DNA of 38,503 bases, taken from positions 1-38,503 of the forward strand of contig BDTH01000029.1 in assembly GCA_002923195.1 (NCBI GenBank). The letters are read 5' to 3'. The notes beneath the pieces were generated by a model, which was not told the DNA's origin, made no database searches, and worked only from the letters and a program-made list of their open reading frames with translations. Positions 6,093-37,391 of the stretch are shown here, piece by piece; position 1 is the stretch's first letter; every line of letters starts with the position of its first letter. The translations under genes were made by a program, and so were the position numbers. Origin of the DNA: a bacterium BMS3Abin15. Its GTDB lineage: Bacteria; Patescibacteriota; Minisyncoccia; Moranbacterales; 2-12-FULL-40-10.

Positions 6093-6194
6093 GTATTAAC
6101 ACACAATAAAGAGCATATTACATGCTCATATCTACGCCTATATTATACTATATTTTATCAAAAAAATCATTCTTGCTTTATTTCTTTCACGAAC

Positions 6195-6497
6195 TTAGGA
6201 TCCGTTTTTATACATAAAATAAGCAAGGGCTAATCCAATTAATATAGCCACAAAGAATTGTACTAAAATTCCAATAGAGATATATTTTCTTTTTTTATAG
6301 AAAAATAACACTGATCCAGTATATATAACTAATATAATGACGGGATATAAAGTTAAAAATGCTTGTTGGGGTAAATTAATTAATAAGAATGATAAGACAT
6401 TTGACAGAATAAAAATAGCAGCAAACATCCCGAAAAAACCAATGCAAAGATCCGCGATTTTCTCTTTTTTGTTTTTATATTCTTTTTTATTTATCAT
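6195..6497 (-). CDS. Small membrane protein of unknown function
   Basis: This is a 100-residue product with a Lys-rich start followed by three hydrophobic stretches likely to span the membrane: about residues 17-40, 46-66 and 74-95. It ends in a short polar tail. It resembles no family I can name. It lies between smc and the glucosidase gene on the same strand, with about 90-100 nt on each side, so it may be transcribed alone. Confidence 0.6.
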   Translation of the reverse strand: MINKKEYKNKKEKIADLCIGFFGMFAAIFILSNVLSFLLINLPQQAFLTLYPVIILVIYTGSVLFFYKKRKYISIGILVQFFVAILIGLALAYFMYKNGS

Positions 6498-6584
6498 GTC
6501 TACATTTATATTTTACTACATTTTCCAAATTTTAGAAACTAAGGCAAGACTTAACGGTCCACCCTAAACATTAAAAAAACCTAC

Positions 6585-7772
6585 TTAATCCTCTCCGATC
6601 ATATTTAATAAACCGCAGGCGGCCCAGGCTTGAAGAGAATTGGCCTTAATGGTGTTTTTTAATCTTCTTTCGTACTGTCTGGCACCGCCAGAAAGGGAGC
6701 TAATCTCGCCATTTTTTACTCCAAATAGCTCAGGTATATATCCTAATTCCTGATAAGCCGACAGTAGCGCTTGCTTTATTTGCCCTGCTTCTTTTAAAAA
6801 TCCTGACTGCTTAAGCCCGTAATAAATTATCCAGTTATCATGCGGCCAGATAGATCCTAGATGGTAACTCGAATAATCAAAATCAGGATTATTTTCAGAA
6901 ACTGTGCGGATGCCGAAAGGCGTAAAAATATCTTTTCTAAAAAGACGTTTTACTATTTTTTGCATAGCTTCTTCCGGAACAATGCCGGAAAAAAGAAGAT
7001 GGCCGGGATTGGAAGAAACGCTTTTCTTGGGATTTTTATTTTTATCAAGAGCCAAATAATAATATTGTTCCTCTTCCCACCAGAAAGCTTTTTGAAATGC
7101 ATTCTTTAGTGCATTTGCCTTATCTGTCCACAAATCCTTTAAAGAATCATCCTTGCTAAAATGCTCGGCTAGCTTAACACCAGCCTTGTAAGCCGCATAA
7201 GCGTAACCCTGAACCTCAACAAGGGCTACCGGTGGAATAATTTTCAGGTGGTCCTCAAAGTTATCGCGCCAACCCTGATGAAAAAGGCCATGGGGATTTT
7301 TCCTTTTATATTCGATAAAATTATCCCGGTCAGGGTCGCCATAAGCCGAAAGCCAGTTAAGAGCCGCTACAATGTTATCCCAGATTTGCAAAAGAAAATC
7401 CATGTCATTGGTTTTTTCAAAATATTTTTCCGCTACAATAACAAAAAGCGGCGTAGAATCAACACCGCCAAAATAAGGAAATTGCCATTCAGGCAAAGCT
7501 GATTGCTCTTTTTTTGTAAACCTGTGCTCATGCAATATCTTGCCTGGCCTTTCTTCTGATTTATTGTTTACAATCTTACTCTGATATTTTGCCAGAATCT
7601 TCAAAGTATTTTTTGCAATTATCGGATCTATTCCGATCATCTGCCAAGAGCTTATAAGAGAGTCTCTGCCGAAAAGAGAAAAATAATTCGGGTAACCGGC
7701 CCTTAGATAACCTTCGGGTGCTTTTAATTTATCAATCCCTAAAAGCAATTTACTTTTGATTTCTTCTTCCAT
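6585..7772 (-). CDS. Glycogen-debranching/amylo-alpha-1,6-glucosidase-type glycoside hydrolase
   Basis: This is a 395-residue cytosolic protein resembling the (alpha/alpha)6-barrel C-terminal domain of glycogen debranching enzymes. Motifs seen: YFSLFGRDSLISSWQMI near the N-terminus, with the family's Arg-Asp; FPYFGGVDSTPLFV; HGLFHQGWRDNF; and SIWPHDNWIIYYGL, with the conserved Trp-Pro-His-Asp. These cluster around the active site of this fold. It would release glucose from alpha-1,6 branch points or related short glucans. No signal peptide is present. The substrate is inferred from family only; a trehalase-like or other alpha-glucosidase activity is possible. Confidence 0.8.
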   Translation of the reverse strand: MEEEIKSKLLLGIDKLKAPEGYLRAGYPNYFSLFGRDSLISSWQMIGIDPIIAKNTLKILAKYQSKIVNNKSEERPGKILHEHRFTKKEQSALPEWQFPYFGGVDSTPLFVIVAEKYFEKTNDMDFLLQIWDNIVAALNWLSAYGDPDRDNFIEYKRKNPHGLFHQGWRDNFEDHLKIIPPVALVEVQGYAYAAYKAGVKLAEHFSKDDSLKDLWTDKANALKNAFQKAFWWEEEQYYYLALDKNKNPKKSVSSNPGHLLFSGIVPEEAMQKIVKRLFRKDIFTPFGIRTVSENNPDFDYSSYHLGSIWPHDNWIIYYGLKQSGFLKEAGQIKQALLSAYQELGYIPELFGVKNGEISSLSGGARQYERRLKNTIKANSLQAWAACGLLNMIGED

Positions 7773-7813
7773 AATATAAACTATATTATTTATTATATTT
7801 TTAATAATACCAT

Positions 7814-8371
7814 CTATTTTCTTATAATTAAATATTTCGTTTCTGGTATTTTATATATTTCTAAATCTTCTTTATATTCCTTCAAACTTTTAAATTCTTT
7901 CGCCCATTTTTTACTGTAATGGACAAAAACTTTTATTGGCAGTATCCCCATTCCTTTTTCTATTCTTTTCTTGCCCCTTACATAATAATACTTTGACAGA
8001 ACATTTGCTCCAGCTGAAGATCCGGCGACTATTTTTCCTCTGAATAATTTTTCCAGATTATTTGTTTTTTTAATTTTGTCAATAAGCAACCTATTGTCTC
8101 CGCCTTTTATATATATTGTATCTGCCCTTTTCACCTGCTTAGAAAAAATTTCCGGATCATCGTCAGCTAATATAAATTCTATTTTCTTTTTAATGTGAGT
8201 AAATTTTTTCTTTTCCCATTCAAATTCCTCAGGCCAAGTTTTTTTAGGTTTTGAAAAACAAACAACCAAAATCCTGGGCATTTTAACACCTTTCACCATT
8301 TCTTTAAAAAAGTTTTTATTATGGATGGAATTTCTTTTTGTCTCCCCTCCATGAAGTATATATTTTATCAT
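7814..8371 (-). CDS. Peptidase S51-family protein (dipeptidase E-like)
   Basis: The 185-residue protein opens with YILHGGET, then a Rossmann-like segment. It has IYIKGGDNRLL and the nucleophile elbow GSSAGAN, where the first Ser after Gly-Ser is the expected catalytic residue. This arrangement is typical of S51 peptidases, related to aspartyl dipeptidase PepE and cyanophycinase. It is slightly shorter than PepE (about 230 residues). It lies 41 nt from the debranching-type gene in the same direction. A dipeptidase role is inferred from the family. Confidence 0.75.
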   Translation of the reverse strand: MIKYILHGGETKRNSIHNKNFFKEMVKGVKMPRILVVCFSKPKKTWPEEFEWEKKKFTHIKKKIEFILADDDPEIFSKQVKRADTIYIKGGDNRLLIDKIKKTNNLEKLFRGKIVAGSSAGANVLSKYYYVRGKKRIEKGMGILPIKVFVHYSKKWAKEFKSLKEYKEDLEIYKIPETKYLIIRK

Positions 8372-8538
8372 GGTCTGTGTGTGTCCTGAATTAAAAACGC
8401 GTTCCGATGAAGACGGTCCTTGCTATTTATCACACAAGTGTTTTTATTCACTTGCCACAAGCAGATTTGTTCTATTTGTAACGTAGGTATCTGCATTACT
8501 GCTATTCTATTTTATCACTAAAAAACGCAAAAATAAAG
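8372..8538. other. Short intergenic region upstream of the S51 peptidase gene
   Basis: Upstream (minus sense) of the peptidase start this stretch has TTACAAATAGAACAAA and short runs of inverted symmetry (AAACACTTGTG). I see no convincing promoter or gene. Confidence 0.3.
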
Positions 8539-8565
8539 AGGCGGCCGAGCTTCTCGGTCGCCTCT
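8539..8565 (-). terminator. Rho-independent terminator after the flavin oxidoreductase gene
   Basis: GAGGCGGCCGAG, CTT, CTCGGTCGCCTC forms a GC-rich 12-bp stem with one G-T pair. On the minus strand it is followed by TTTATTTTT, and it lies just after the oxidoreductase stop. Confidence 0.85.
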
Positions 8566-8571
8566 AATTTT

Positions 8572-9639
8572 CTACAAACTTTCTTCAGCTTCTTTTACCA
8601 GCTGATCCATTAAGCTCTTTACCGAAACGATTTCATTGCACCTGTAAGCATTTGATCCGGCAAAGACAAGTCCTTCGTCCAGATTTCCTTCTGCTGCGTT
8701 TGCCAACGCCTTGGCAATGCAAAATGGAGATGTTCTCGGATTGCAGGATTTTAAGCAGCGGAACTTACAGGTAAAGGGGATTTGCTTCCCCTCTAAAACC
8801 TCTTCAACGAATTTGTTCCTAATCGCTCTACCTGGCATACCAACCGGACTCTTTATGATTACGATGTCCTTCTTCTTCGCGTTCAGGTATGCCTGTTTGA
8901 ATTTTTCGTGAACGTCGCATTCATTAGTGCAAACGAAGCGAGTGCCCATTTGAACTCCTGAAGCGTCAAGCTTGAGAACGCGTGCTATGTCTTTTCCGTC
9001 AAAGATGCCTCCGGCAGCTATTACGGGAATCAGCTTATCAAAAGAGTTCGCTACCTCAATAACTTCCAGGAGTATTTTATCAAGCTCAGGCGCTGTTTCG
9101 TTCAAAGTATCTTCATAGGAAAATCCCACGTGTCCACCGGCCATTGAGCCCTCTACTACTACTGCGTCAGGCAATTTGTTGTGATGTCTTTTCCATTTTT
9201 TGCATATTATTGAAAAAGCTCTTGCTGAAGACACAATGGGAACCAGTTTTATATTCTTGCCGCCAATCAGCTTCGGAAGATCAGATGGAAGGCCCGCTCC
9301 CGAGATAATTAAATCAACTCCTTCTTCAACAGCGACCCTGACCAGGCTTTCATAATTTGAGAGAGCGATCATTATGTTCACGCCGATTATGCCCTTAGTT
9401 AATTCTCTTGCTTTTCGTATCTCCTCCCTGAAAGCGTCGTCGTTTACTTTTACAAATTCTTTTCCCGGCCTGTCCTCAAATTTTCCAAGACCTACGCCTG
9501 CGATTATTCCTATTCCTCCTTCATTAGCTACAGCAGATGCAAGCCCTGAGCGTGAAACCCTTATTCCCATCCCCCCCTGTATTATAGGAGGGTAGACTTC
9601 TAAGTCGCCAATTTTTAAAGTCGGCATTCTTTTGCTCAT
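8572..9639 (-). CDS. FMN-dependent nitronate monooxygenase/enoyl-ACP reductase (FabK)-like oxidoreductase
   Basis: TIM-barrel flavoprotein of about 355 residues. The N-terminus has IIQGGMGIRVS. The middle has IISGAGLPSDLP and the His-containing EGSMAGGHVGF. FMN-phosphate-binding segments are PVIAAGGIFDGKDIARVL and GVQMGTRF. Near the C-terminus four Cys cluster (CKFRCLKSCNPRTSPFC), which could bind a metal or cluster but have no assigned role. An ATG 33 nt upstream is in frame, but the start at 9639 has a strong AAAGGAGGG Shine-Dalgarno site, so I place the start there. Family members oxidise alkyl nitronates or reduce enoyl-ACP; sequence alone does not decide which. Confidence 0.85.
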   Translation of the reverse strand: MSKRMPTLKIGDLEVYPPIIQGGMGIRVSRSGLASAVANEGGIGIIAGVGLGKFEDRPGKEFVKVNDDAFREEIRKARELTKGIIGVNIMIALSNYESLVRVAVEEGVDLIISGAGLPSDLPKLIGGKNIKLVPIVSSARAFSIICKKWKRHHNKLPDAVVVEGSMAGGHVGFSYEDTLNETAPELDKILLEVIEVANSFDKLIPVIAAGGIFDGKDIARVLKLDASGVQMGTRFVCTNECDVHEKFKQAYLNAKKKDIVIIKSPVGMPGRAIRNKFVEEVLEGKQIPFTCKFRCLKSCNPRTSPFCIAKALANAAEGNLDEGLVFAGSNAYRCNEIVSVKSLMDQLVKEAEESL

Positions 9640-9701
9640 ATTCCCTCCTTTTTTAAAGAACTTGTATTTCACACTAGTCTACATCTAGTTATAATAGCTG
9701 T

Positions 9702-9752
9702 CAATAAGTGCCTATTCCCCCTAAACCTTCCACAATTTGTCGTGAATGGGGG
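9702..9752. repeat. Hairpin in the intergenic region before the inserted gene
   Basis: ATTCCCCC and GGGGGTTA enclose the smaller TTCCAC...GTGAA inverted repeat. It may be a terminator-like palindrome, but no gene reads into it on the plus strand. Confidence 0.4.
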
Positions 9753-9781
9753 TTATTTTACCAGAATATAACACATATATT

Positions 9782-9817
9782 TAAACAAACACACTCCAGA
9801 AAAATATTATTATCATT
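9782..9817 (-). pseudogene. Duplicated remnant of the 3' end of the DUF456 gene
   Basis: This 36-nt stretch matches 10808-10843, the last codons of the DUF456 gene, at 34 of 36 positions. On the minus strand it still reads MIIIFFWSVFV-stop; the differences I see are synonymous or in the stop codon (TAA instead of TAG). It therefore looks like a displaced gene end rather than a chance repeat. Confidence 0.75.
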
Positions 9818-9822
9818 TTACA

Positions 9823-9851
9823 TTGACTTTTGTGTGTTGGTCTGTTATGCA
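9823..9851 (+). promoter_or_regulatory. Promoter of the hypothetical gene at 9924
   Basis: TTGACT (9823-9828) and TATGCA (9846-9851) are separated by 17 bp, close to the sigma-70 consensus. The start codon follows about 70 nt later. Confidence 0.7.
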
Positions 9852-9923
9852 ATAGTCACGGCGTTTTTAACGTCAAATTTTTCCTGAGAGGGAATAAAAA
9901 CTCTGAGAGGAGGTCTTTGAAAA

Positions 9924-10733
9924 ATGAAAATGGAAGATAAGAACATTAACGAAGCATTGGAACTGTTGTTTAAGCTGGGCAACAGGGACTTTAAGCTTCA
10001 AGTTATACGCAGTTTATCGGATGGCGATATTGATACCATTCGTAAAACATGCATGAGACATAACGACTTTCACCACATAGCAATAGCCATAGAGGCTACA
10101 TGCATGTCTGACATGAACAACATTACTGATTGGATGTATCCGACCTTTGTTGCCTACCCCCTTGAAATTCTTTTTAGGGAAGTGGAAAGCATGAAAATGC
10201 ATGGCTTACACAGCTACTCCCCAGACAATCTTATAATAGATTGTGCCCCCTATTACGTCCTCGGTCTTATTCTCGGCTTCCTGAATTTCAGTAACCGGTT
10301 TGACGAGAAATGCCAGACGATCGAATTCGCGAAAGAGACAGCCATTGCAGAGCATTATATTGGCAAGTTTCTTGATTTTTTCATGTTTAAGAGTCCCTTA
10401 ACAGACGCCGTAGATGAGCTGTTAAAAAGATCCAATTTGCGGAAAAGATATGAAGGAGCTTTATCCAACACAGTTAAGAAATTCATGCGAAATAATAAGG
10501 CCAGGGCGCATGTCGGTGTTAGAAAAGCGACCGTTCAACTATTGATTAAAAGGGCATCGGACCATTTTGAAAAAAATAATACCTCTAAATCCTTAAACGA
10601 ACAATCGTCCAAAATAGGAGAAATGCTATTAGATCAAATATGCTTTGCCTTCTTCGGAAGAATGAGCACTTACGGAAGAGTTCTTGCCTTAGAAACTTGC
10701 ATCAAAGAACTTACTACTGTAAAAAAGACATAG
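9924..10733 (+). CDS. Hypothetical protein in a segment flanked by duplicated gene ends
   Basis: The 269-residue product is predicted soluble and mainly helical, with scattered Cys and His and no signal peptide. I recognise no family. It has its own promoter, a strong AGGAGG ribosome site about 14 nt before the ATG and its own terminator, so it is a self-contained unit opposite in direction to both neighbours. It is bracketed by two copies of the 3' end of the DUF456 gene (9782-9817 and 10808-10843), which suggests it arrived by integration or recombination at that gene end. The helical repeats near residues 10-110 could suggest a binding protein, but that is speculation. Confidence 0.8.
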   Translation: MKMEDKNINEALELLFKLGNRDFKLQVIRSLSDGDIDTIRKTCMRHNDFHHIAIAIEATCMSDMNNITDWMYPTFVAYPLEILFREVESMKMHGLHSYSPDNLIIDCAPYYVLGLILGFLNFSNRFDEKCQTIEFAKETAIAEHYIGKFLDFFMFKSPLTDAVDELLKRSNLRKRYEGALSNTVKKFMRNNKARAHVGVRKATVQLLIKRASDHFEKNNTSKSLNEQSSKIGEMLLDQICFAFFGRMSTYGRVLALETCIKELTTVKKT

Positions 10734-10757
10734 TGCTTCACCTATTAAAACAAAACA

Positions 10758-10798
10758 AGAGCAGTTCCGCAAAAATGGAACTGCTCTTTTCTTTTTTT
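10758..10798 (+). terminator. Rho-independent terminator after the hypothetical gene
   Basis: AGAGCAGTTCC and GGAACTGCTCT form a perfect 11-bp stem with an 8-nt loop, followed by TTTTCTTTTTTT. Confidence 0.95.
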
Positions 10799-10806
10799 AA
10801 ATCAAA

Positions 10807-11394
10807 CTAAACAAACACGCTCCAGAAAAAGATTATTATCATTGCAATGCCGAATATTACTTTGGCGGCGGTGCCGCCTAGAAATCCCAGCACGCTTCCC
10901 ACCCCTACTTTCAACGAATGATTAACGCTCTTACTGGCGAACAGCATTTCAAAAATAACAGCGCCTAAGAAAATCCCAATCACCAGCCCGATAATATTTC
11001 CCAAAATCATGCCAACAATTCCTAGAATTATAGATCCCCATACCCCATATTTAGTCGACCCCATTTTCTTAGCCCCATAAGCCCCGGCTAGATAATCAAA
11101 CACTTGGGCTAAAACAGCAATCACTCCCAAAATAATTAAGGCGATAATTCCCACTTTGGCAAAGCCGGTAAAAAATGAATATATAAAAATACCAACGAAT
11201 ATTATTGGCGTTCCCGGCAAAGCAGGAATAATTGTTCCCGCCAGCCCGATCAAAATTATAAGTATTGTAATAATCCAGAGTATAACTGCTTCCATTCCCC
11301 AATTAAACCATAAAGTAAGAAAAAATAAAACAATCAGTGCTGCAAATCCCACCATAAACAAAACACATTCGCACATTCGTACGAATAAGACCAT
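10807..11394 (-). CDS. DUF456-family integral membrane protein
   Basis: The frame gives up to 195 residues, but the conserved family start is MEAVILWIITILIILIGLAG, Met at residue 34 (position 11295). The upstream part may be untranslated, since the first Met codon (11394) lies within a 21-bp direct repeat. Conserved features are LAGTIIPALPGTPIIF, then a Gly-rich membrane region (DYLAGAYGAKKMGSTKYG) and GIFLGAVIFEML. About four to five membrane segments are expected. DUF456 function is not known. It lies directly downstream of an ArsR-type regulator gene, which may control it. Its last 36 nt are duplicated about 1 kb away. Confidence 0.85.
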   Translation of the reverse strand: MVLFVRMCECVLFMVGFAALIVLFFLTLWFNWGMEAVILWIITILIILIGLAGTIIPALPGTPIIFVGIFIYSFFTGFAKVGIIALIILGVIAVLAQVFDYLAGAYGAKKMGSTKYGVWGSIILGIVGMILGNIIGLVIGIFLGAVIFEMLFASKSVNHSLKVGVGSVLGFLGGTAAKVIFGIAMIIIFFWSVFV

Positions 11395-24802: not shown

Positions 24803-24873
24803 TTAATCTTTTAATTTTTCTTTTAATAACTTAGCTACTATTTGGGGATTGGCTTTGCCTTTTGTTTCGGCTC
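24803..24873 (-). pseudogene. Duplicated, diverged 3' end of gatB
   Basis: On the minus strand this reads AETKGKANPQIVAKLLKEKLKD-stop. The true GatB ends SDTKGRANPQVIIKLLKEKLKGK-stop just upstream. The remnant has no start and is separated from gatB by about 25 nt containing TCCGCCGTAGTGGTGGA, a short palindrome. It is a duplicate or a leftover of a replaced gatB copy. Confidence 0.85.
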
Positions 24874-24896: not shown

Positions 24897-26396
24897 TTAC
24901 TTGCCCTTTAACTTTTCTTTAAGTAATTTTATTATTACTTGTGGGTTTGCCCTGCCCTTGGTATCCGACATAACTTGCCCCATCAAAAACTGCAATGCAT
25001 TTTCCTTCCCCTTTTTATAATCTTCAACTGATTTGGCATTATTGTCAAGTATTTTTTGGACCACGCTTTTCAGTTCCCCCTCGTCACTGACTTGGATTAG
25101 ATTTTTACTTTCTATAATTTGCGATGGATCACCTCCGGTTTTATACATTTCAGAAAGCACTGTTTGCGCCGCACTGGAATTTATTTTTCCTGATGCGACA
25201 AAGCCAATGAGTTCAGCAAAATTCTCCGGAGTTATTTTTATGTCACTTATGGACTGACCACTTTCGGTCAGGTGTTTTTTCAGCTCGCTTATTATGTAAT
25301 TGACTGCTGATTTTACTATTTTATCTTCCGCGATATCAAATTCTTTGGACTGAATCTTTTCCCTAAGCTCGCTAACAACATTTTCAAAATAATCGGCTAG
25401 ATTTTTATCTGACACTAAAATTTCTACGTCGTCACCTGGCAACTTGAACTGCTTCCCAAACCGCTTGGCTTTTTCAGCCGGTAGTTCGGGCAATTCTTTC
25501 TTGAGATTTTTAATATAATCGTCCGTAAATTTTAGCGGTGGAATATCAGGCTCCGGGAAATAGCGATAATCAGCTGACGTTTCTTTGATCCTTTGAGATA
25601 TAGTAGCATTACGATTACTGTCCCACCCCCTTGTCTCTTGCACCACTTTCTTTTTTTCCTCTAATAATTCTGCCTGGCGCTTAATTTCATAATCAATGGC
25701 TTTTTCAACAAATTTGAAAGAATTTATGTTCTTCACCTCAACCTTCGTTCCACTTAACTTATCTTCGCCTTTTTTATAGAGTGAGACATTAGCCTCACAG
25801 CGCATATGCCCCTTTTCCATATCTGCATCGGATATTCCGAGATATCGGCAAATTTGCTGTAATTTTTGGCAGAATAATCTGGCTTCCGCACCACTTTCAA
25901 TGTCTGGCTCCGTTACCAGTTCCATAAGAGGGACGCCTGCTCGGTTGAAATCGACTAGGGTATAATCGGTGCCCTTAGGATGAATAAGTTTGCCTGTATC
26001 TTCCTCCAAATGAATTCTGGTAATTCCGATTTTTTTATTATTAATCTCTAAGCTTCCTTTTCCGCATAATGGCTGATCATACTGTGAAATTTGGTAGCCT
26101 TTGGGCAAATCGGGATAAAAATAATTTTTCCGGTCAAATTTTGAGTCTTTGCTCAATTCACAATCAAGGGCCAGTCCGGCTAATTGAGTAAATTCTATAG
26201 CTTGCTTATTAGGAACTGGCAACGTTCCCGGCTGACCAGTACATACTGGACATATAAGCGTGTTTGGTTCCAGGCCTTTATCCTCCGAAGTTTCAACGAA
26301 GGAGGACATTCCGTTTTTTGAACTACAAAACATCTTGGACTCTGTCTTGAGTTCAACATGCACTTCCATCCCAATTGTGACATTGTATTTATTCAT
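24897..26396 (-). CDS. gatB: Aspartyl/glutamyl-tRNA amidotransferase subunit B
   Basis: GatB activates mischarged Glu-tRNA-Gln or Asp-tRNA-Asn for amidation by GatA. It begins NKYNVTIGMEVHVELKT, then has zinc-site Cys (MFCSSKN, and CPVCTGQPGTLPVPN), FDRKNYFYPDLPKGYQISQYDQP, GVPLMELVTEPDI and ADYRYFPEPDIPP. The C-terminal tRNA-binding YqeY-like tail is complete (499 residues, normal). gatA and gatC are not in the window. A second, diverged copy of its last 22 codons follows directly. Confidence 0.96.
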   Translation of the reverse strand: MNKYNVTIGMEVHVELKTESKMFCSSKNGMSSFVETSEDKGLEPNTLICPVCTGQPGTLPVPNKQAIEFTQLAGLALDCELSKDSKFDRKNYFYPDLPKGYQISQYDQPLCGKGSLEINNKKIGITRIHLEEDTGKLIHPKGTDYTLVDFNRAGVPLMELVTEPDIESGAEARLFCQKLQQICRYLGISDADMEKGHMRCEANVSLYKKGEDKLSGTKVEVKNINSFKFVEKAIDYEIKRQAELLEEKKKVVQETRGWDSNRNATISQRIKETSADYRYFPEPDIPPLKFTDDYIKNLKKELPELPAEKAKRFGKQFKLPGDDVEILVSDKNLADYFENVVSELREKIQSKEFDIAEDKIVKSAVNYIISELKKHLTESGQSISDIKITPENFAELIGFVASGKINSSAAQTVLSEMYKTGGDPSQIIESKNLIQVSDEGELKSVVQKILDNNAKSVEDYKKGKENALQFLMGQVMSDTKGRANPQVIIKLLKEKLKGK

Positions 26397-35459: not shown

Positions 35460-36356
35460 ATGAAAGTATTACTCAAAACTATTCTATATATTTCTCTTTT
35501 CGCAGTAGCCTTCCTAACTGCTTTTTATTTGCCACCTTATTTTGATAAATTTGTCAATGAAAGCCTGGAAAAAATCGAAACCAGAGGCCAAGCAAGAATA
35601 GAAACCTCTAAGGCAAAAATAAGCGCTCCGGTTCAAGAATCAGAGTTTGAAAAAACTGCTCAATACGGAAAACTAAACTGCCAAAATTATGAAAATAATA
35701 CATTAGTAAGCGGTATTTTTGAGAGAATAAATACTGACAGGGAGTTGAACAATAAAAAAGCGCTATCTTGGTCCAATCTTCTTTGTCAGTCTGCCAACTT
35801 AAAGGCGGAAAATATGATAGAAAACAGTTACTTCGAGCATGTTTCCCCTTCGGGTGTTACTCCATGGTACTGGATTGACAGAGTGGAGTACAAATATACA
35901 TTTTCGGGAGAAAATTTGGCGCTGAATTATTATACATCCGAAAGCGCTCACATAGCCTTAATGAATAGCCCAGGACATAAAGCTAACATACTCAACGAAA
36001 ATTTTACTCAAATTGGACTAGCCTATTTCAGAGGCAAGATAAATAATCAGGATGCTTTTGTTATTGTCCAACACTTTGCCAGCCCGGCACCTGAAGTTCC
36101 TCCGGTTAAATATGTCTGCGAAACTAAAAAGGCTGAGAAAAATTTAAAAGACCTTGAAAGGGATAAGAAAAAAATAGATAATTATCTTAAAGATGCCGAA
36201 GATATCAAAGATCAGATAAAAGCCGCTGGCGGCGACACGGATGAAGTAAATGACTACATTGATGATATGGAAGATAAGAAGAAAAGAGTAAAAAAATACA
36301 TCCGGGAAATTGAAGACTACCTGGATGAGTGTAAAAAGTTAAATGCCTCTAATTAA
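35460..36356 (+). CDS. Membrane-anchored CAP (SCP/PR1-like) domain protein with coiled-coil tail
   Basis: Residues 5-23 are a hydrophobic anchor or signal (TILYISLFAVAFLTAFYL). After a short helical linker, a CAP domain spans about residues 80-215: ERINTDRELNNKKALSWSNLLCQSA, SYFEHVSPSGVTPWYWI, YTFSGENLAL, LMNSPGHKANILN and FVIVQHFAS. The His/Glu residues of the CAP cavity (FEHVSP, GENLA, PGHKANIL) are kept. A C-terminal Lys/Asp/Glu-rich coiled coil (about 230-290) follows. Extracytoplasmic CAP proteins of bacteria have varied, often unknown roles. Its 3' end overlaps the convergent DGR reverse transcriptase gene by 18 nt. Confidence 0.9.
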   Translation: MKVLLKTILYISLFAVAFLTAFYLPPYFDKFVNESLEKIETRGQARIETSKAKISAPVQESEFEKTAQYGKLNCQNYENNTLVSGIFERINTDRELNNKKALSWSNLLCQSANLKAENMIENSYFEHVSPSGVTPWYWIDRVEYKYTFSGENLALNYYTSESAHIALMNSPGHKANILNENFTQIGLAYFRGKINNQDAFVIVQHFASPAPEVPPVKYVCETKKAEKNLKDLERDKKKIDNYLKDAEDIKDQIKAAGGDTDEVNDYIDDMEDKKKRVKKYIREIEDYLDECKKLNASN

Positions 36357-37391
36357 TCTATAAATTTTCTTTTTAATTCCCTGTCCCTTGCAATGTTTGA
36401 GCACTCCATAATACGATTGCAAGCTTTGATCAAATGACTTTTTTGAAATTAATCTATTTTTTAATTCACGCTTTTTCAATATAATTTTCTTTATTATTCT
36501 CTTTTTGGTTTTCATCCGCAGAACCTTATGGTAAGGCAAAGCAACGTAACCCAAAAAATCAATGCCTTGCCGATATTTTCTAATGATTATTTTATCAGGA
36601 TGCAAAATTAACTTTAGATTTCTTTGTAAAAAATCATCAATTATTGGAATTAAACTTTGCAGATATTCACTATCTTTCCCCAAAATCAGAAAATCATCGC
36701 AATATCGCAGATAATATTTAGATTTTAGCTTATGCTTCGCAAATTGATCCAGTTCATTGAGATAAATATTGGCAAATAACTGGCTAGTAACATTCCCCAA
36801 CGGCAATCCGATCGGAAAGCTTTTGATAATTTTTTTAACCAGCCAGATCGTGTTTTTATCCTTTATTTTCTTTTCGATGAGTTTCAGTAAAATACCCTGA
36901 TCAATAGAATCAAAAAACTTTTTAATGTCACATTTGAGCGCAAAAATATTTTTGTGGTTATTTCCGTTTAATTTACGACAAAATTCTTCCAATCGCAAAA
37001 CACCTCTATGCGTTCCTTTTTCTATCCGGCAGGAATAAGAATCAAAAATGAAATTTTTATCAAATATCGGATAAAGGATTCTGAAAACCGCATGATGCAA
37101 GATTCTGTCTTTGACGGTTGCCTTGTGAATACGCCTTAGTTTTGGATCACAGACGTTAAATGCGGTATAATGAGAATGTCGATAAAATTTAAGTTTTAAT
37201 TCCCGATGAAGCTGGAATATATTATCTTCTAAGTTAAATTCAAACTGCTGAATGTCTGATTTATTCTTTTTACCGTGACTGAATTCTTTCCATGCTAAAA
37301 ATAAATTTTCCAAAGAAATAATTTCCTCAAAAATATTTATATTTTGATTTTTAATATTTAATTTATGACTATCAATCCCCCCCCCCAACAC
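36339..37391 (-). CDS. Diversity-generating retroelement reverse transcriptase
   Basis: Copies TR RNA into adenine-mutated cDNA. Motifs: KATVKDRILHHAVFRILYPI (about residues 91-110), catalytic DIKKFFDSID (155-164), GLPLGNVTSQLFANIYLNEL (195-214, the DGR-type [LIV]GxxxSQ), YCDDFLIL (YxDD, 230-237) and LHPDKIIIRKYRQGIDFLGY (263-282). There is no maturase or endonuclease domain, which argues against a group II intron. The first frame-open start is GTG 37391, without a good ribosome site, immediately before a 10-G run (sense strand). With 9 G the frame would instead continue to ATG 37422 (MYQRRIKITES...). No internal Met lies ahead of the fingers domain, so the start must be at or upstream of the run. 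Confidence 0.93.
   Translation of the reverse strand: MLGGGIDSHKLNIKNQNINIFEEIISLENLFLAWKEFSHGKKNKSDIQQFEFNLEDNIFQLHRELKLKFYRHSHYTAFNVCDPKLRRIHKATVKDRILHHAVFRILYPIFDKNFIFDSYSCRIEKGTHRGVLRLEEFCRKLNGNNHKNIFALKCDIKKFFDSIDQGILLKLIEKKIKDKNTIWLVKKIIKSFPIGLPLGNVTSQLFANIYLNELDQFAKHKLKSKYYLRYCDDFLILGKDSEYLQSLIPIIDDFLQRNLKLILHPDKIIIRKYRQGIDFLGYVALPYHKVLRMKTKKRIIKKIILKKRELKNRLISKKSFDQSLQSYYGVLKHCKGQGIKKKIYRLIRGI
37377..37386 (+). repeat. 10-C homopolymer at the facing 5' ends of RT and avd
   Basis: Ten consecutive C (G on the minus strand). Deleting one base would place ATG 37365 (plus) in frame with avd and ATG 37422 (minus) in frame with RT. As given, both genes have only GTG or TTG starts downstream of or next to the run. 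Confidence 0.95.

What the first reader, a model, noticed from the sequence alone, without database searches (positions are those of the whole stretch)
9782..10843. A 1-kb gene cassette flanked by two copies of the DUF456 3' end
Seen: 34/36 identity between 9782-9817 and 10808-10843, with both copies encoding the same last residues. Between them is one hypothetical gene with its own promoter and terminator. This is how integrative elements that target gene 3' ends look (attL/attR with a restored gene). There is no integrase, so it might be a satellite moved in trans.
Basis: partly seen in the sequence, partly recalled or inferred. Interest (0 to 1): 0.62.

Follow-up and report, generated by a model that had tools for sequence, protein, structure and literature searches.

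The report
Recombination scar beside an acquired gene
In a small uncultured bacterium, a 1-kb foreign gene sits between the working end of an ordinary gene and an orphaned second copy of that end; at least five other genes in the same genome show the same scar, which points to a DNA-uptake and recombination habit rather than to a virus-like mobile element.

Summary
9782-9817 and 10808-10843 match 34/36, and in register both encode MIIIFFWSVFV-stop of DUF456 with only synonymous differences. The region is an insertion: the nearest relative that keeps nusB-rnc-DUF456-smc has 96 bp between DUF456 and smc; the window has 4.7 kb.

The reading as an attL/attR element or satellite is not supported. 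There is no integrase, the 36-mer occurs nowhere else in the genome or in viral contigs, and relatives of the cargo gene sit elsewhere (ftsW-murG) without repeats. Above all, the scar is not unique. In 1.05 Mb of this genome, six genes have orphaned 3' tails (DUF456, gatB, metK, endonuclease IV, a GH1 glucosidase and a GT4 glycosyltransferase, the last with two) and one has an orphaned 5' head. Lengths vary from 36 to 170 nt, and one tail (gatB, in this window) has no cargo. Differences fall at third codon positions (46 of 68), so the orphans are divergent alleles, not decayed duplicates. ComEC, DprA and RecA are present.

Best explanation: incoming related DNA anchored by homology in the host gene and joined illegitimately at its other end. 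The cargo belongs to an undescribed family with a conserved tandem GAGA-hairpin leader.

The parts
10807..11394 (-). DUF456 membrane-protein gene, intact; its last 12 codons (10807-10842) are the 'right copy'
   Evidence: PF04306 E 7.4e-38; orthologue next to smc in relative G063 at 65% identity
9781..9816 (-). Orphaned (displaced) DUF456 tail: last 12 codons including stop, three silent third-position differences from the intact gene ('left copy')
9818..10806 (+). Inserted segment (cargo) between the intact gene end and the orphan tail
   Evidence: bounded by the repeat; DUF456-smc are 96 bp apart in G063
9881..9912 (+). 5' leader with two tandem small hairpins with GAGA loops; the GGAGG ribosome-binding site overlaps the 3' arm of the second
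   Evidence: only such pair in 1.05 Mb of own genome; same leader with three hairpins before the homologues in L290, L294, L295
9924..10733 (+). Cargo ORF, 269 aa, undescribed family; homologues (17-24% identity) between ftsW and murG in three species of another lineage
   Evidence: no hit in Pfam, NCBIfam above cut-off, PADLOC, PHROGs, PDB, phages, plasmids, viral contigs; homologues
10757..10788 (.). Bidirectional intrinsic terminator between the convergent cargo ORF and DUF456
9712..9781 (-). Second orphan tail: last ~8 codons (..YMCYILVK*) and conserved 3' UTR of a small membrane/winged-helix gene family (full length at G000:C48 and C82; tails or cores at C31, C96)
24809..24871 (-). Orphan gatB tail 25 nt downstream of the intact gatB gene (24897-26396), no cargo between: same kind of scar in the same window
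   Evidence: tblastn 15/21 identical residues, E 2.5e-6; 11 of 17 nucleotide differences at third positions
6093..9711 (.). Further material between DUF456 and smc absent from relative G063: small membrane protein, MGH1-like/GDE-type glycosidase, S51 peptidase, nitronate monooxygenase

Best explanation
The flanking repeat is the scar of an additive allele replacement. DNA from a related lineage, carrying its own DUF456 allele with the cargo gene behind it, entered the cell (most simply by natural transformation). It paired with the resident DUF456 by homology, and its other end was joined illegitimately inside the last codons of the resident gene. The result is a DUF456 gene ending in the donor's tail, then the cargo, then the orphaned last 12 codons of the old allele with the old downstream DNA (homology-facilitated illegitimate recombination, HFIR). 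Shown: two divergent coding alleles of the tail, the insertion relative to G063, six genes with the same scar, and a complete uptake/recombination gene set. Inferred: the recombination steps, their direction, and which tail is old. The cargo is a unit with its own leader and terminator. I think (weakly) that it is a defence- or toxin-like gene whose translation is held down by the GAGA hairpins over its ribosome-binding site.
For: Scar confirmed. The same pattern at sequence-unrelated genes in this genome: metK around a Fic gene, a GT4 gene with two displaced tails around RhuM-Fic and PaaX/Cas2-like cargo, endonuclease IV, GH1 glucosidase, gatB without cargo; one displaced gene head (epimerase, around a GIY-YIG gene), which a 3'-end integrase would not make. 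Tail lengths differ (36, 61, ~100, 170 nt), even at the same GT4 gene. 46 of 68 differences at third codon positions, P 8e-9, so copies diverged as coding alleles before one was orphaned. Middle gene pieces are not found displaced; controls of 511 and 300 genes gave no clear displaced tail. ComEC, DprA, RecA present. Published precedent with orphan 3' ends (PMC5361080).
Against: No close relative is held, so the empty site before this very event, the donor allele and the crossover point inside DUF456 could not be seen; G063 is another family. HFIR is rare where measured (several orders of magnitude below homologous recombination, PMC5361080). Six genes in one genome is many, and the excess over controls is modest (7/887 vs 0/811, P 0.016; controls are short loci, which lowers their chance of showing pairs). 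The 3'-over-5' bias is not predicted by HFIR itself and needs selection against new promoters.
Confidence: 0.57

Rival explanations
1. Site-specific integrative element: attL/attR formed by an integrase that targets the DUF456 3' end. The 1-kb unit is a satellite or deletion remnant moved in trans; its attP carries a silent-site-different copy of the gene tail.
For: Perfect restoration of the reading frame with silent changes, insertion at the 3' end, one complete unit of leader, ORF and terminator between the repeats; three tyrosine recombinases in the genome.
Against: No integrase in the unit; the 36-mer occurs only here and not in viral contigs; none of the recombinases lies near such a site. 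The other scars concern unrelated genes with tails of different length, one has no cargo, one is at a gene head. Homologous cargo elsewhere lacks such repeats.
Confidence: 0.2
2. Tandem duplication of DUF456 with later loss of most of one copy, the cargo having been acquired independently.
For: Produces a truncated copy next to the gene; orphan tails at other loci show decay (stop in the endonuclease IV tail, frameshift in the third GT4 tail).
Against: A decaying remnant should collect changes at all codon positions; here 3/3 (DUF456) and 46/68 overall are third-position. Repeated association with new cargo is not explained.
Confidence: 0.1
3. Assembly artefact: two strain haplotypes (with and without the cargo) concatenated in a metagenome-derived contig.
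For: The genome is a 114-contig assembly, 89% complete, and the two tails look like alleles of two strains.
Against: No N at the junction; other orphan tails are visibly decayed and nested serially with different cargo (C96, C39), which an assembler would not invent; a 36-bp overlap is shorter than usual assembly overlaps (own knowledge).
Confidence: 0.13

Closest known systems
Displaced (orphan) gene ends at T6SS effector-immunity and Rhs/CDI loci, attributed to homology-facilitated illegitimate recombination (Kirchberger et al. 2017, PMC5361080)
   Same: Incoming DNA anchored by a conserved homologous stretch, new cargo added, old 3' end pushed downstream and kept; repeated at one locus; no integrase.
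   Different: Here the anchors are ordinary genes (DUF456, metK, gatB, endonuclease IV, GH1, a glycosyltransferase), not toxin loci, and the cargo is an unrelated single gene behind the gene rather than an alternative C-terminal domain.
Genomic islands and satellites integrated at gene 3' ends (tyrosine-integrase islands, PICIs)
   Same: Duplicated gene end with the frame restored, cargo between the copies.
   Different: No integrase, 1 kb only, site not found elsewhere, target genes differ with no common core, one scar lacks cargo.
Integron gene cassettes
   Same: Single gene with its terminator, bounded by repeats.
   Different: The repeat is a gene tail, has no attC features, and the two copies are specific to this locus.

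Membership tests
Site-specific integrative element at a gene 3' end | Direct repeat of the gene end at both borders with the gene restored | tested here: met
   34/36 repeat, identical peptide and stop
Site-specific integrative element at a gene 3' end | Integrase in the element, or a resident/helper recombinase with the same site | tested here: not met
   Only one ORF in the unit, no recombinase domain; 36-mer only at these two places in the genome, recombinase loci elsewhere, none in viral contigs
Site-specific integrative element at a gene 3' end | Same element or site reused in other genomes | tested here: not met
   No cargo homologue in 142 order relatives; homologues in genus g80 sit at ftsW-murG without gene-end repeats
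Site-specific integrative element at a gene 3' end | Excised circle and precise empty site | not testable with these tools
   No reads; no same-genus genome held
HFIR / displaced-end scar | Orphan gene end that is a different allele of the neighbouring intact gene | tested here: met
   Third-position bias 46/68, P 8e-9; 3/3 for DUF456
HFIR / displaced-end scar | Non-homologous cargo added at the locus relative to relatives | tested here: met
   96 bp DUF456-smc in G063 against 4.7 kb in the window; a single, distant relative
HFIR / displaced-end scar | One homologous junction, i.e. a breakpoint inside the intact gene | not tested
   No genome close enough for a breakpoint analysis of DUF456
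HFIR / displaced-end scar | DNA uptake and homologous recombination machinery in the host | tested here: met
   ComEC PF03772, DprA PF02481 and RecA PF00154
Integron cassette | attC site | tested here: not met
   Border repeat is coding sequence of DUF456; attC-like sites seen by eye only on other contigs, C101 and C113
DUF456 (PF04306) | Pfam gathering score | tested here: met
   130.4 bits against cut-off 29.4

The most novel reading that the evidence does not exclude
An undescribed integrase-less way of gene capture is common in this lineage: single defence-like genes with their own leader and terminator dock behind the 3' ends of arbitrary housekeeping genes, bringing a recoded copy of the host gene's tail, so that successive captures stack as arrays of orphan tails (as at the GT4 gene on C96). 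The gene in the window would belong to a family recognised by its tandem GAGA-hairpin leader.
Probability: 0.12. Interest if true: 0.75.

Novelty: new variant of a known kind. Interest (0 to 1): 0.45.

Why it matters
If right, orphan gene tails are countable scars of DNA acquisition in uncultured small-genome bacteria. They mark where foreign genes were added, which allele is foreign, and that gene gain here can work without mobile-element machinery. It also warns that a duplicated gene end around a gene is not by itself evidence of an integrative element. The scars make HFIR, otherwise measured at low frequency in a few laboratory species, directly testable by population sequencing.

Tried and rejected
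(1) Integrase/satellite reading: searched the repeat in own genome and viral contigs, and listed recombinases; nothing linked. (2) Cargo function: Pfam, NCBIfam, PADLOC, PHROGs, PDB sequence searches negative; NCBIfam UreE at E 0.056 is chance; AlphaFold on the single sequence gave pLDDT 41, all helical, not usable, so no fold search. (3) Rfam: only sub-threshold chance hits on the terminator hairpin. (4) Covariance model of the GAGA leader over 380 genomes: apart from the training set, the best match (1.8e-6) has no fitting downstream gene on inspection; the rest look like chance. Covariation in the leader is too small to prove the hairpins. (5) The apparent tail duplication in relative L026 is an intergenic repeat family, not a gene tail. 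(6) The cassette is not compositionally foreign: G+C 38.7% against 36.6% genome. (7) A scan of public genomes with the 17-nt core of the 9712-9781 element gave scattered matches in unrelated bacteria, which I take as chance. (8) L291 and L035 weak hits to the cargo protein are not homologues by inspection. (9) Head duplications in the census are mostly signal-peptide or tandem paralogues, so only the epimerase head is counted.

Full report
WHAT IS THERE. In register, 10807-10842 and 9781-9816 (minus strand) both read ATG ATA ATA AT(C/A) TTT TTC TGG AG(C/T) GTG TTT GTT TA(G/A). All three differences are third-position and silent. The right copy ends an intact DUF456 gene (PF04306). Between the copies lie a 269-aa ORF in convergent orientation and a bidirectional terminator. 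A promoter inside the unit is not supported above chance. Outside the left copy, 9712-9781 is the end of yet another gene: the last codons and 3' UTR of a small membrane-anchored winged-helix gene that is complete at two other places in the genome.

IT IS AN INSERTION. Among 96 genomes searched, 26 besides the own genome hold DUF456. In the best match, G063, the order is nusB-rnc-DUF456-smc as in the window, with 96 bp from the DUF456 stop to the smc start. In the window 4.7 kb lies between them: the cargo gene, the two orphan tails, a nitronate monooxygenase, an S51 peptidase, a glycosidase and a small membrane protein. The cargo gene was found in no DUF456-bearing relative.

IT IS NOT ALONE. 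I then looked for copies of gene ends outside other genes, on the same strand within 8-12 kb. Displaced 3' tails were found for DUF456; gatB (in this same window, 24809-24871, 25 nt after the gatB stop, no cargo); metK on C95 (61 nt, around a Fic-domain gene); endonuclease IV on C39 (beyond a PaaX/Cas2-like gene, tail with an internal stop); a GH1 glucosidase on C31 (beyond a 1091-aa protein; the weakest of the set, E 0.003); and a GT4 glycosyltransferase on C96. The GT4 gene has two displaced tails, ~170 and ~100 nt, the second frameshifted, separating a RhuM-Fic gene and a PaaX/Cas2-like gene, with an Abi_C gene beyond. A displaced 5' head occurs at an epimerase gene on C95, around a GIY-YIG gene. 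Middle pieces of genes gave no real case. Controls gave no clear displaced tail in 511 genes of unrelated bacterial loci and 300 genes of relatives' loci. The difference is modest (7/887 copies against 0/811, P 0.016), and the control loci are short.

WHAT MADE THE SCARS. In five pairs the differences fall at codon positions 1/2/3 as 15/7/46 (P 8e-9). The orphaned ends therefore diverged from the intact ones while both were under coding constraint: they are alleles of different lineages, not duplicates that decayed in place. This fits DNA from relatives that brought its own gene end plus new genes. It also fits an integrase element with a recoded attP, but that model needs a recombinase and a fixed core. 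Here target genes are unrelated, tail lengths vary even at one gene, one scar has no cargo, one is at a gene head, and no recombinase is linked. The genome has ComEC, DprA and RecA. The same logic has been proposed for orphan 3' ends at T6SS and Rhs loci by homology-facilitated illegitimate recombination (PMC5361080), and Patescibacteria are described as competent for DNA uptake (PMC12455944). The recombination steps themselves are inferred, not shown.

THE CARGO. The 269-aa protein has no match in Pfam, PADLOC, PHROGs (above chance), PDB, phage, plasmid or viral collections. A phylum-level search found one relative (G228), and a profile search at class level added two more from the same genus. 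In these three species the gene lies between ftsW and murG. In the window's genome ftsW and murG are 54 bp apart without it, so the gene occupies different loci in different lineages. The proteins share only 17-24% identity with the window's. Yet all four genes carry the same kind of leader: tandem hairpins about 20 nt apart with GAGA loops, the last overlapping the ribosome-binding site, with the 13-mer GAGAGGGAATAAA identical in all four. The arrangement occurs nowhere else in 1.05 Mb of own genome or in the other loci scanned, and a covariance search of 380 genomes gave no further convincing case. I therefore treat leader, ORF and terminator as one unit and propose translational control through the leader. 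Covariation is too weak to prove the structure. A defence or toxin role is a guess from the company of Fic, RhuM-Fic, PaaX/Cas2-like and Abi_C cargo at the other scars.

VERDICT. Real feature; the interpretation should change from integrative element or satellite to displaced-end recombination scar with a mobile-by-recombination cargo gene. It is a new variant of a known kind: the kind (orphan ends by HFIR) is known from toxin loci, while its repeated use behind ordinary genes in one small genome, and the leader-bearing cargo family, are new to my knowledge. The main uncertainty is the lack of same-species genomes or reads.

Noticed in passing
G000:C39 5714-5753/6452-6491, C69 2501-3381, C85 8939-9621 and 11321-12019, C61 813-1512, C100 214-1093, C35 23235-24123, C32 22872-23547 (L207, L237, L253, L229, L268, L203, L200/L286): PaaX_M (Cas2-like domain) genes are each hugged by a pair of 29-57 bp direct repeats that differ from gene to gene and in four cases are near-perfect palindromes (C39: 40/40 identical). 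7 of 8 motif-matched PaaX_M ORFs score 20 or more, against 10 of 649 other ORFs with score 22 or more. They look like self-contained single-gene elements or self-operators; no publication found.
   Followed up: partly
G000:C101 3421-3557/4161-4294 and C113 328-388/1250-1310 (L269, L281): Single genes flanked by repeats ending in ..TAACC...GCGTTAT / GCGTTAGG, which look by eye like integron attC sites; either a CALIN in this genome or mis-binned contigs.
   Followed up: no
window 9712-9760; G000:C31 ~21984, C48 ~3505, C82 ~2349, C96 ~6791, C78 ~6183: Dispersed 3'-UTR element with core AAATTGTGGAAGGTTT inside imperfect inverted arms (CCCCTATT..AATAGG), next to or derived from a small winged-helix gene; the C96 and C78 copies share extra downstream sequence. 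Exact core not found in 130 order relatives.
   Followed up: partly
G000:C95 11431-11835 (L263): A 65-aa GIY-YIG gene lies between two alleles of the epimerase gene's first 12 codons (all codon differences synonymous) and is bordered by G+C-rich inverted repeats; possible homing-type element.
   Followed up: no
L264 (C96) just upstream of the displaced tails at 10255 and 8905: Both displaced GT4 tails are preceded by TTAAAGTYGGGT; the DUF456 orphan tail is preceded by AAAAGTCAATGTAA. May be chance or a junction feature.
   Followed up: no
G000:C32 1578-2333 (L200): RAYT-like Y1 transposase gene flanked by REP-like hairpins CCGAAGGTTGAGCCTTCGG.
   Followed up: no
L026 492-578, 2028-2108, 2827-2910: Relative G017: intergenic repeat (AACTTTAGGAATTC...GATAACGGGGTTG) after each of several short genes including DUF456; possibly a cassette-type array.
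   Followed up: no
window 36339-37391 minus: ORF with reverse-transcriptase-like sequence (..YLRYCDDFLILGKD..) by eye; type not examined.
   Followed up: no
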